A DNA stretch of 64,000 bases from Apostichopus japonicus (Eukaryota > Echinodermata > Holothuroidea > Aspidochirotida > Stichopodidae). The stretch spans positions 540,501 through 604,500 of the forward strand of contig NC_092562.1 in assembly GCF_037975245.1 (NCBI RefSeq). The letters are read 5' to 3'. The notes under the pieces are model-generated. The model was not told the origin of the DNA, searched no databases, and saw only the letters and a program-made list of their open reading frames with translations. Positions 26,876 through 64,000 of this stretch are shown one piece after another (the stretch's first letter is position 1; every line of letters starts with the position of its first letter). Both the position numbers and the translations under genes were made by a program.

Positions 26876-26928
<53 letters not shown>
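26876..26928. repeat. (TA)n microsatellite at the 3' side of the hammerhead-bearing element
   Basis: Uninterrupted TA tract of about 50 bases. On the minus strand it follows the tRNA-like/hammerhead module, in the position of a SINE tail; the SINE at 34620 also ends in (TA)n. Confidence 0.9.
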
Positions 26929-26931
<3 letters not shown>

Positions 26932-26965
26932 CAATCAATAAAGAATAACGCACCAGAAAAATCCA

Positions 26966-27007
26966 CTTCACGACCGGTTTCGTCCTTTTGGGACTCATCA
27001 GGCGAAG
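26966..27007 (-). ncRNA. Hammerhead ribozyme (type I, minimal stem III)
   Basis: On the minus strand, in order: CTTCGC (stem I 5'), CTGATGA core, GTCC-CAAAA-GGAC (stem II, four perfect pairs plus loop), GAA(A) core, ACCGGT and C before the cleavage site, then GTGAAG (stem I 3'). Stem I pairs six of six with one G-U wobble. All invariant core bases of the hammerhead are present. Cleavage is predicted after the C at plus position 26972. Stem III is the self-complementary ACCGGU with no loop, so a single RNA cannot close it and two copies would have to pair. Minimal hammerheads of this sort are reported for Penelope-like retroelements and act as dimers. Sequence evidence is strong; activity is inferred. 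Confidence 0.88.
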
Positions 27008-27072
27008 GTAGGAATCGAACCCCGGATCTTCGTGTCACAAACCTAAGCCCGTACCACTCGACCACAGTGATT
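27008..27072 (-). repeat. tRNA-like (SINE-head) module joined to the hammerhead
   Basis: On the minus strand, TGGTCGAGTGG is an A-box-like motif and GGTTCGATTCC a B box, spaced as in a type-2 tRNA. The anticodon and T stems do not pair cleanly, so it is tRNA-derived and not a functional tRNA. It ends directly at stem I of the hammerhead. Confidence 0.65.
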
Positions 27073-27140
27073 CTACTGATGTGTTAAAGCATATAAACTG
27101 GCTTTGAATAACTGTCATTAAGGGCGTATTACCCAAGTTT

Positions 27141-27170
27141 ATATATATATATATATATATGTATATATAA
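27141..27170. repeat. (TA)n microsatellite between the tRNA-like module and the PLE remnant
   Basis: TA tract with one GTATATA interruption, marking the 3' boundary (minus strand) of the PLE-derived stretch. Confidence 0.8.
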
Positions 27171-27411
27171 ACCTTTGGTTGGTTGGCGTCTATCTTGGCG
27201 CATAGTGCTATGTTCGGTGGACAGAGCGAAGTATAGGTGAAATTAGTGGAGACTAGTGGAACACTAGTAGTTGTTACTCAGTTTCACACGTTTGAGGGAT
27301 CATTAGACAACTGGTAGCTTCATGTTGTACTCCTGGAATATATAACCCAAGCAAATAGACTCATCGAGGATTATCGTCAGGATTATAGAGGATTATTGGC
27401 ATACCGTCCCT

Positions 27412-33078: not shown

Positions 33079-34754
33079 GTAAGTATATACATGACCCCTA
33101 TCTTCACATTTGAATTAAACTTAAAGGCATTGAAGACTTGACCCAAACCGCGTGCCGCCCTCTGAAAAAAGGTAACTTTCCCTTGCTTGCAAGTGACGTT
33201 TTTTCTTGTCGCTACAAAATGCAGACAGTAATGAACATGATACCTTGTTATCTTTCATCTGGACCTGAGATCAGGGAAATGTTATGGAACAACTCCCTGC
33301 TGAGATGTCCCTCGCTGCTACATACACTGTGGTGTGGATATTGACCGTAGCTGCCTGTATTGACTGTACACTAGTGTTTAATGGGATCAATGGTGGTGTC
33401 TAACACTTCTGTTACACCTCATTCGAAACTAGGTCAGATTACCGGCATCAGATGTTTCTTTGATTCCCTTTAATCACATTGATTCACTTTGATAGGTTGA
33501 TTCACTTCCATCGAATTTTACAGTGCTACCGTGATACTTTTATAGCTATTCTAACTTTCTGGTGCACAGCAGGTTGAGAACCTATCATGATATTGTCTTC
33601 TTGTTTCATACATTTCAACTCCAGACTAGATTGTGGGCAGTTCTGCCTAGAATGCCTTCCTGATCTTTTCCCTGACATTTAGCAACACTACCCCCACCCC
33701 CTGGCCCATCTCTCCCTCCCTCCCTCCTCTCTCTTCTATTTTACCTTCCTCAGGTTTGGCAACATGCCATCAACTTTACTTACTACTCAAGATTATTCAG
33801 TCATGAATGTGTTAAATTTTCAAGCGAGAATGAACACAAATTGAACAGAAATTTGGTAGTCCGGAACGACTGCTAAAAATTTGCCCCGAATACTAACTGT
33901 TTCTGACCATTAGAAGTAGAGCTCATTTTGAACATCGCATTTCGATGTCAAAACAATTGTTTGAAAAAACATGCATTGACAAAATAATTCATTAGAAATT
34001 TTTTTTGCATGAATTTCAAGAAACCAAGGTGGAACATGTGTACAGGTCAAAGTATCAATATCTGTCAAAGTTGTACCAGAAGTAGAATGCACACGTATAT
34101 TGTATGTGTGTATGAAACAGTCTGTCTGCCACTGTAGGATGGCTGTCTAGTCCGGACAACACCATCCATTATCAATTTATCAAATGTTATCTTTATATAA
34201 CAGGCTCTTCTTAAAGAGAATCGAGCACTTTCAGAGACCTGTGTATAACCAGACTCTTATTGTCAATATATATAAACATGTATATATATATATGTATATA
34301 TATTTATATATATATGGAGGCTGGAAGTTTTTTCACTGTTCTGGATTTTCCTTCTCATTACGTTTTCATTGATATTTATTCATTTGCCTTAAATTTCCTT
34401 TACCTCCATTCCATTAACATAAAGTCTGTTCAAAGTATCTCTTTCGAGATCGGGCTTTAGGAATCACAAATGATTTTCGAGTTGGTTAGCATTATGTTTG
34501 ATCTCTAGAGTAAGGCAAAGTTTGTCACCAAAAACAGAACTAGTATTGTTCAATACAGGTGTCAAACGCCTACAGTGAAATTACGACCTTCCTTACCAGT
34601 TTCGAACCTCTGGACATACAATCAGCGTCCATGGCCTAGTTGGTAAGGGTGTCCGCGTACAAAGCGGGAGGCCCGGGTTCAAACCCCGGTGGAGGCTGGA
34701 AGTTTTTTCACTGTTCTGAATTATCTTTCGAATCCTTTTCATTACGTTTTCATT

Positions 34755-62292: not shown

Positions 62293-62700
62293 TGCTAGGG
62301 AAGCTTTTATCACTTCATTGCGATTATGTAAGGGAGATCAAGAACACTTACTGGCTTATCATCCAGAAATTGATTTACGACAAAAACAGAAATAATCAGT
62401 GGCCCAGTGTACTTTCCTGTCTGTGAAACACTTGTAATACACTACAACATGGTTTATCATTAGCCATGGTGGAACTAGTGAATTATAGGTGAAAAACGAA
62501 CCGACAGAGGTGTGTGCTATGTGCACTATTACACAGCAGTGTTTCTGCTAGTGTAATTATCTGGTGGTTTCAGCTGATCAGATCATGTTGTGTTCACTTT
62601 AACAGCTTAGCTAACTCTCTCTTCAAATCAACACTTTCTGAGCTTGTAAGAGGCAGTAACAGAGCTGGTGAGAGGCAGTAGCACGCCATGTGGTCCTACA
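62293..62700 (+). other. Presumed 3' flank of the GUK-like gene
   Basis: No canonical AATAAA seen before the tandem array; nothing else recognised. Confidence 0.4.
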
Positions 62701-62739
62701 CCTGTTAGAGATAAGCCTATCATGTGATTCTGTTGATGG

Positions 62740-64000
62740 GGCCCAAACATGTAATCCTGCAATATGTTGCTACTAATGGGGTCATGTAAACCCACCATGT
62801 CTCTCTTCTGATGGGGCCATGTGTCTTCCTTTTGATCCGACCATATATGTAAACCCACCATATGTTCCTTTGATAGGACCATACATATAAACCCAGCATG
62901 TGTTTCTTTTGATGGGACCAAACATGTAAACCCACCTATGTTCCTTTGATGGGACCATACATATAAACCCAGCATGTGTTTCCTTTGATGGGACCAAACA
63001 TGTAAACCCACCATATGTTCCTTTGATGGGACCATACATATAAACCCAGTATGTGTTTCCTTTAATGGGACCAAACATGTAAACCCAGTATGTGTTTCCT
63101 TTGATGAGACCAAACATGTAAACCCACCATATGTTTCCTTTGATGAGACCGTACATGTAAACCCACCATATGTTCCTTTGATAGGACCGTACATATAAAC
63201 CCAGCATGTGTTTCCTTTGATGGGACCAAACATGTAAACCCACCATATGTTCCTTTGATGGGACCATACATATAAACCCACCATGTGTTTCCTTTGATGG
63301 GATTATACATGTAAATCCACCATGTGTTTCCTTTGATGGGACCATAAATGTAAACCCAACATGTGTTTCCTATGACGGGTCATACATGTAAACTCACCAT
63401 GTGTTCCTTTGACGACCATACATGTAAACCCACCATGCGTTTCCTATGATGGGACCATACATGTAAACCCACCATATGTTTCCTTTGATGGGACCATACA
63501 TGTAAACCCACTATGTTTCCTTTGATGGGACCATACATGTAGCCCACCATGTGTTTCCTTTGATGGGATTATACATGTAAACCCACCATGTGTTTCCTTT
63601 GATGGGCCATACATGTAAACCCACCATATGTTTCCTTTGATGGGACCAAACATGTAAACCCACCATATGTTTCCTTTGATGGGACCATACATGTAAACCC
63701 ACCATATGTTTCCTTTGATGGGACCATACATGTAAACCCACCATATGTTTCCTTTGATGGGGCCATACATGTTAACCCACCATATATTTCCTTTGATGGG
63801 GCCATACATGTTAACCCACCATGTGTTACCTTTGATAGGGCCATACATGTTAACCCACCATGTTTCTTTGATGGGACCATACATGTTAACCCACCATGTA
63901 TCCCTTTGATTGGATTATACATGTAAACCCACCATATGTTTCCTTTGATGGGACCATACATGTAAACCCACAATGTGTTTCCTATGATGGAGGTCACATG
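62740..64000. repeat. 39-bp tandem array, about 32 copies, running off the right end
   Basis: Unit close to GGGACCATACATGTAAACCC + ACCATATGTTTCCTTTGAT. Most units are 39 bp, some 38 or shorter. Because 39 is a multiple of three and the unit has no stop in any minus-strand frame, all three minus frames stay open for 70-218 codons with 13-residue periods (MYGPIKGNTWWVY, MVPSKETHGGFTC and HVWSHQRKHMVGL). Units near the left end are more diverged. Confidence 0.95.

What the first reader, a model, noticed from the sequence alone, without database searches (positions are those of the whole stretch)
26966..27007. Intact hammerhead ribozyme core with a loop-less, self-complementary stem III
Every invariant hammerhead base is present on the minus strand, with perfect stems I and II. 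Stem III is ACCGGU, which can only form between two RNAs. This fits the dimer-acting minimal hammerheads reported with Penelope-like elements, and implies cleavage would depend on transcript concentration or on tandem copies.
Basis: partly seen in the sequence, partly recalled or inferred. Interest (0 to 1): 0.75.

Follow-up and report, generated by a model that had tools for sequence, protein, structure and literature searches.

The report
Hammerhead mini-element moved by Penelope-type machinery
The self-cleaving RNA motif is real and belongs to a family of short repeats that seem to multiply by borrowing the copying enzyme of Penelope retrotransposons, which bears on an open question about how such ribozyme elements spread in animals.

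Summary
The hammerhead at 26966-27007 (-) is real (RF00163, 38.8 bits, E 2.8e-6). It lies in one 5'-truncated copy (26926-27137) of a dispersed element with a unit of about 340-350 bp, no long ORF, tandem at some loci; 214 places in the 671.6 Mb genome fit a strict ribozyme pattern. By structure it is a metazoan retrozyme, not a Penelope pLTR. Stem III (A-CCGG-U) resembles the axolotl type, where a monomer forms one pair plus a tetraloop, so 'only between two RNAs' is too strong; dimer action is plausible, untested.

New: copies sit in (TA)n and mostly end at one of two sites 38 nt apart. In head-to-head insertions with both ends classifiable, one arm ends at each site (17 of 17 independent events). 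Penelope-like elements (PLEs) here show the same kind of ends and pairing (13 of 13), anatomy described before for PLEs. This is genomic evidence that PLE machinery moves these retrozymes, which PMC7229834 had proposed. No sequence likeness of the tails was found. An A/B-box module may be a pol III promoter; no tRNA model matches it. Ribozyme constraint among copies was not shown.

The parts
26926..27137 (-). retrozyme copy, 5'-truncated, about 0.6 of a unit, with (TA)n on both sides
26966..27007 (-). type I hammerhead ribozyme
   Evidence: RF00163 38.8 bits, E 2.8e-6
27002..27007 (-). stem I inner, 5' strand CUUCGC
26995..27001 (-). core CUGAUGA
26982..26994 (-). stem II GUCC/GGAC with loop CAAAA
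26973..26978 (-). stem III ACCGGU, palindromic; preceded by core GAA at 26979-26981
   Evidence: 73 of the 100 places listed keep it (hand count)
26966..26972 (-). C17 (26972), predicted cleavage 3' of it, and stem I 3' strand GUGAAG
   Evidence: cleavage inferred
27011..27016 (-). outer stem I, 5' strand GAUUCC, overlapping the B box
   Evidence: RF02275 alignment of sister copy L004, below gathering score
26959..26964 (-). outer stem I, 3' strand (GGAUUU here, GGAAUU in the consensus)
27011..27021 (-). B-box-like GGTTCGATTCC
   Evidence: read by eye; no tRNA model match; consensus recalled
27054..27064 (-). A-box-like TGGTCGAGTGG
   Evidence: read by eye; divergence among copies; consensus recalled
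26957..26961 (-). T5 run, possible pol III stop just after the ribozyme
   Evidence: sequence; function inferred
26877..26928 (.). (TA)n at the element's 3' end (site-1-type end)
27140..27160 (.). (TA)n at the element's 5' end
27172..27313 (-). fragment of a second hammerhead-bearing repeat family beside the same microsatellite; degenerate hammerhead at 27262-27313
   Evidence: reading by eye

Best explanation
The motif is the ribozyme of a metazoan non-LTR retrozyme: a non-coding unit of about 340-350 nt (possible A/B-box promoter module, type I hammerhead, two reverse-transcription start sites) that spreads with the machinery of Penelope-like elements. Proposed cycle: (1) transcription, from its own A/B boxes or by read-through; (2) cleavage after C17, best when two ribozymes pair through ACCGGU, giving monomers that the host may circularise; (3) a PLE RT/GIY-YIG protein cuts both strands of a (TA)n tract, and the 3' ends prime cDNA at site 1 (..TTACTA|UAUAU) or 38 nt downstream at site 2 (..CAAUUCUUA|U); (4) one cDNA gives a 5'-truncated or 1.x-unit copy, two give a head-to-head copy with one arm from each site. 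Shown from sequence: the unit, its tandem copies, the two ends, the pairing of ends, and the same kind of ends and pairing in PLEs of this genome. Inferred: cleavage, circles, the dimer, transcription, and that a PLE protein did it.
For: Unit and tandems: ribozymes 339-352 bp apart in L004, L005, L032, L038, L074-L077 (one cluster, overlapping or duplicate loci) and L083, and a trimer in L108 (2 x 341); longest stop-to-stop frame 62 codons, GC 0.41, on a typed consensus. Ribozyme; 214 places for a 35-base ribozyme pattern, 0 for the reversed control. Ends and pairing: of 32 head-to-head rows, 12 were set aside because an arm did not end at one of the two sites in (TA)n; of the other 20, 19 have one arm at each site and 1 is same-site. 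Merging a duplicate and leaving out the two copies of one event in L018 gives 17 of 17. PLEs: 37 GIY-YIG matches; ends of the same kind; 14 of 14 head-to-head pairs among 53 pattern places are discordant, 13 without a duplicate, and the 24 unpaired places are 12 to 12; 3 pairs seen at both ends. The two arms of one retrozyme insertion share variants (45 of 54 informative positions, against 693 of 1288 between loci; 0 of 5000 permutations reached this). Literature: a PLE protein cleaves AT-rich DNA, extends both strands and starts RT at two internal sites in vitro (PMC11167929); [quoted passage not shown] PLEs proposed as movers of retrozymes (PMC7229834).
Against: No significant likeness between retrozyme and PLE family A tails (shuffle p 0.165), so no PLE family is named as partner. 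In vitro the PLE starts RT at a site not homologous to the cut DNA, with no difference between strands and no need of hammerhead cleavage (PMC11167929), whereas site 1 here carries UAUAU that could anneal to the target. The lowest-energy circle pairs three core bases (CUG with CGG). A T5 run after the ribozyme would stop pol III before both RT start sites. No tRNA model matches the A/B module at E 10. Ribozyme constraint is not shown: inside the span used to pick the copies its divergence is 1.3% against 2.0% for the rest, p 0.36; the larger contrasts come from how copies were chosen. 27 of 100 listed places have a non-palindromic stem III; L059 (ACGCGU) is the only compensated change seen, among L059-L088. 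One of the two L018 copies is same-site. No transcript or protein data, and no LINE control.
Confidence: 0.78

Rival explanations
1. The copy is a solo pLTR of an autonomous PLE whose 5'/3' repeats carry a minimal dimer-acting hammerhead.
For: Type I hammerhead with very short stem III; (TA)n target; PLE-like ends.
Against: No match to the unit in the 37 GIY-YIG loci held; colinear likeness among 38 loci stops with the unit except between pairs of loci; tandems repeat at about 340 bp with no long frame between. Limits: 17 of the 37 loci are only 1.2-1.4 kb, and PLE 5' ends were mostly not seen.
Confidence: 0.08
2. A tRNA-type SINE that picked up a hammerhead, moved by a LINE.
For: A- and B-box-like sequences beside the ribozyme; dispersed, 5'-truncated copies.
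Against: About 175 nt precede the A box in the unit; units occur in tandem; ends follow the PLE two-site pairing; no tRNA model match.
Confidence: 0.08
3. The two end classes and head-to-head copies arise after insertion by slippage and inversion in (TA)n, not from two RT start sites.
For: L018 holds duplicates of one event whose one arm has a site-1 end in one copy and a site-2 end in the other, as a deletion between TA tracts would give.
Against: It does not predict one arm per class in 17 of 17 retrozyme and 13 of 13 PLE events (0.5^17 = 7.6e-6 even at a discordance rate of one half); the arms begin at different unit positions.
Confidence: 0.06

Closest known systems
Metazoan non-LTR retrozymes (Cervera and de la Pena 2020, PMC7229834; abstract, parts 1-2 of 3 of the Results, Discussion and passages seen)
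   Same: Non-coding units of 150-450 bp, GC below 50%, type I hammerhead, tandem copies, many loci; PLEs named there as a strong candidate mover.
   Different: Here an A/B-box module adjoins the ribozyme (a review says retrozymes seem to lack promoters, PMC7761336 section 9) and the insertions carry a PLE-type signature.
Axolotl hammerhead HHR_Amex1 and newt satellite hammerheads (PMC7229834)
   Same: One-pair stem III capped by a palindromic tetraloop; units of 330-350 bp; dimers cleave better than monomers there.
   Different: No sequence comparison made; cleavage untested here.
Minimal hammerheads of Penelope-like elements (Cervera and de la Pena 2014, Lunse 2017; not held, known only through citing papers)
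   Same: Very short stem III, dimer action reported.
   Different: Not in a pLTR as far as the loci held show; stem I here may have an outer helix and internal loop.
PLE insertion anatomy (Arkhipova 2013 PMC3846280, passages; Frangieh 2024 PMC11167929, abstract and main text)
   Same: Inverted head-to-head ends, an optional tail of about 30-40 bp on one of the inverted ends, internal RT start sites, AT-rich targets.
   Different: Here the same anatomy is on a non-coding hammerhead unit, with counts.
Smalpha elements of Schistosoma (PMC8490949, passages)
   Same: SINE-like repeat with a type I hammerhead.
   Different: No sequence comparison made.

Membership tests
Metazoan retrozyme | type I hammerhead | tested here: met
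   RF00163 above gathering score
Metazoan retrozyme | non-coding unit of 150-450 bp, GC below 50% | tested here: met
   unit about 340-350 bp, GC 0.41, longest frame 62 codons
Metazoan retrozyme | tandem copies | tested here: met
   339-352 bp spacing in 9 loci, four of them one cluster, and a trimer in L108; the window copy itself is single
Metazoan retrozyme | self-cleaved linear and circular RNA | not testable with these tools
   no transcript data
PLE pLTR hammerhead | located in the terminal repeats of an RT/GIY-YIG element | tested here: not met
   no match to the unit in 37 GIY-YIG loci, most of them covering only the 3' part
Moved by PLE machinery | two alternative 3' ends 30-40 nt apart, one per arm in head-to-head copies | tested here: met
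   17 of 17 independent classifiable events, 12 of 32 rows set aside; PLEs here 13 of 13
Moved by PLE machinery | shared tail sequence with a PLE | tested here: not met
   shuffle p 0.165 against PLE family A; other PLE families not compared
tRNA-derived SINE | tRNA-like head recognised by a tRNA model | tested here: not met
   no RF00005 match at E 10 in the window copy or L004; ARAGORN none there
tRNA-derived SINE | A and B boxes | tested here: inconclusive
   TGGTCGAGTGG and GGTTCGATTCC by eye, consensus recalled; A box 0.4%, B box 2.7% divergence, 3.1% between them

The most novel reading that the evidence does not exclude
A hammerhead circular-RNA parasite of Penelope-like elements with its own pol III promoter, in which the palindromic stem III does double duty: it activates the ribozyme as a dimer and holds two sister RNAs together, so that one PLE complex copies one RNA from site 1 and the other from site 2 onto the two ends of a broken (TA)n tract.
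Probability: 0.15. Interest if true: 0.88.

Novelty: new variant of a known kind. Interest (0 to 1): 0.6.

Why it matters
One review states that metazoan retrozymes show no motif that reveals which autonomous element moves them and seem to lack promoters (PMC7761336, section 9); PMC7229834 named PLEs as a strong candidate, on shared hammerheads, tandem copies and co-existence. Here a retrozyme family carries a quantitative PLE-type insertion fingerprint in the same genome as PLEs with that fingerprint. That makes PLE mobilisation testable by scoring head-to-head copies in any retrozyme genome. It also gives counts for a PLE feature, one arm per RT start site, that a two-ended target-primed mechanism must explain.

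Tried and rejected
Considered and set aside: solo PLE pLTR, tRNA-SINE, retrozyme and PLE family A tails being the same sequence (p 0.165). Constraint on the ribozyme: a strong contrast vanished when I compared only positions inside the query span that picked the copies, so I dropped it as support. Compensatory change as proof of stem III: only L059 is compensated among the loci, and 27 of 100 listed places break the palindrome (hand count). A pattern with a wrong letter found only read-through tails and was corrected. PF26215 is not in the library. Not tested: LINE ends as a control, PLE families other than A for the pairing rule, retrozymes of other species.

Full report
OBSERVATION. The minus strand from 27007 to 26966 holds a complete type I hammerhead. 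RF00163 matches it end to end with 38.8 bits, E 2.8e-6 over the 64-kb window. In a sister copy RF02275 aligns with an outer stem I (GAUUCC/GGAAUU) beyond a small internal loop, at 40.0 bits against a gathering score of 52. The window copy lacks one base of that outer 3' strand.

STEM III. ACCGGU is a palindrome. As a three-pair stem it has no loop, so full pairing needs a second RNA. As a monomer it could form one A-U pair over a CCGG tetraloop, the form that PMC7229834 describes for axolotl HHR_Amex1 (6% cleavage of the monomer in an hour, much more as a dimer). ViennaRNA gives -26.5 kcal/mol for two 42-mers against 2 x -11.2, and -39.1 against -35.0 for longer pieces. The monomer minimum pairs three core bases; the dimer leaves the core open. 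In a genome-wide pattern that leaves four stem III letters free, 214 places match and the reversed control has none; of the 100 places listed, 73 read CCGG and 27 do not, none of the 27 palindromic (hand count). L059 reads ACGCGU, a compensated double change.

THE ELEMENT. A 181-base query gave 40 matches of about 145 bases or more, 92-100% identical, and shorter ones; the tool scores only the best candidates, so this is a lower bound. Reading 38 loci showed a longer unit. Tandem ribozymes lie 339-352 bp apart in L004, L005, L032, L038, L074-L077 (one cluster, overlapping or duplicate) and L083, and L108 has three units 341 bp apart; other spacings, 572, 328 and 212, occur in L018, L074/L075 and L083. 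The unit has GC 0.41 and no frame over 62 codons. In 29 of the 30 loci brought in by RF00163 a strict motif found the same family; L072 did not match the strict motif. RF00163 had 66,307 loose candidates of which 74 were scored and 59 matched, so the copy number is not known. Among the 38 loci, colinear likeness beyond the unit is found only between pairs of loci. The window copy is about 0.6 of a unit and lies between two (TA)n tracts. These are features of metazoan retrozymes (PMC7229834).

CONSTRAINT NOT SHOWN. In 40 pieces from the sample the ribozyme diverges by 1.3% and the 60 nt before the A box by 5.7%. That contrast is unfair, because the copies were picked by likeness to a query that covers the ribozyme and not those 60 nt in full. 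Inside the query span the other 103 positions diverge by 2.0%, p 0.36. So the copies do not show selection on the ribozyme, for or against.

PROMOTER-LIKE MODULE. Just 5' of the ribozyme stand TGGTCGAGTGG and GGTTCGATTCC, which fit the pol III A- and B-box consensus as I recall it. The B box overlaps the outer stem I. Divergence is 0.4% in the A box and 2.7% in the B box, against 3.1% between them. No tRNA model matches at E 10 and ARAGORN finds none there. A T5 run follows the ribozyme, ahead of both RT start sites, which speaks against a full-length pol III transcript unless it is read through.

TWO ENDS. Aligning copies to the unit puts most 3' ends at two places: site 1 (..TTACTA, then TATAT into (TA)n) and site 2, 38 nt on (..CATTCAATTCTTA into (TA)n). 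With duplicates removed, single-arm copies have 24 site-1, 8 site-2 and 6 other ends; arms with an inverted neighbour have 28, 21 and 11 (a looser automatic rule than below).

ONE ARM PER SITE. Script 80 listed 32 head-to-head rows. Twelve were set aside because an arm did not end at one of the two sites in (TA)n: L002, L010, L011, L029, L032, L034, L035, L070, L071, L073, L088, L107. Of the other 20 rows, 19 have one arm at each site and one (L018, first copy) has site 1 on both. L027 duplicates L026, and the two L018 rows look like copies of one event and are left out, so 17 of 17 independent events are discordant. Fourteen of these come from samples drawn before the idea (L001-L038, L059-L088). 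L106, L108 and L109 come from opposite-strand pairs seen in the lists; of the five such pairs not yet held I fetched four (L106-L109), the fifth being a likely duplicate of L109. At a discordance rate of one half the chance is 7.6e-6 for 17 and 6e-5 for 14. The two arms of an event share variants: 45 of 54 informative positions agree, against 693 of 1288 between loci, and 0 of 5000 permutations did as well. Four of the 17 pairs had no informative overlap.

PENELOPE-LIKE ELEMENTS. PF01541 gives 37 GIY-YIG matches in this genome, a lower bound. Their commonest family ends in (TA)n at TTTTTCTAC or, with a tail of about 30 nt, at ACATTGCC. A pattern for that end found 53 places. Fourteen head-to-head pairs are all discordant, 13 after removing a likely duplicate; the 24 unpaired places are 12 to 12, and some of these may have a partner arm that the pattern misses. 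In the pattern the tail class rests on 11 bases; in three pairs seen at both ends (L046, L048, L049) the tail arm ends at site 2 in (TA)n, and L090/L091 agree. [quoted passage not shown] So the rule in PLEs is in part known; what I did not find in print is the rule on a retrozyme (searches; open-licence papers only, most seen as listings).

LIMITS. Retrozyme and PLE family A tails are not alike beyond chance (p 0.165), so no partner family is named. The unit has no match in the 37 GIY-YIG loci held, 17 of them only 1.2-1.4 kb long. No LINE control was run. L018 suggests that TA tracts can change an end after insertion. The species is not known. Cleavage, circles, transcription and protein action are untested.

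Noticed in passing
window 27172-27313 (-): Fragment of a second hammerhead-bearing family with stem III of the type ACUC.GAGU, core degenerate here (CTAATGA); better-kept copies in L042, L049, L050. 7 of 72 retrozyme loci carry its motifs, duplicates included.
   Followed up: partly
L040; also L042, L097, L099-L101: A second PLE-like group with (TA)n ends; L040 has a hammerhead-like CTGACGA..GAAAGCTTA near the 3' end, the others a related, less complete stretch.
   Followed up: no
window 34625-34697 (+): tRNA-like match (51.6 bits; ARAGORN tRNA-Cys(aca)); a similar stretch appears in the flank of L002, perhaps a SINE family.
   Followed up: no
L002, L011, L029, L071, L088: Head-to-head inverted pieces in which an arm lacks a normal 3' end, perhaps template switching or later rearrangement.
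   Followed up: no
G000:C11:4174027 (+) and 4174351 (-): A retrozyme ribozyme and a PLE family A 3' end lie about 290 bp apart, their 3' ends facing each other.
   Followed up: no
window 62628-63997 (-): Long overlapping frames of a short repeated peptide (GGFTCMVPSKETY-like), a tandem repeat.
   Followed up: no
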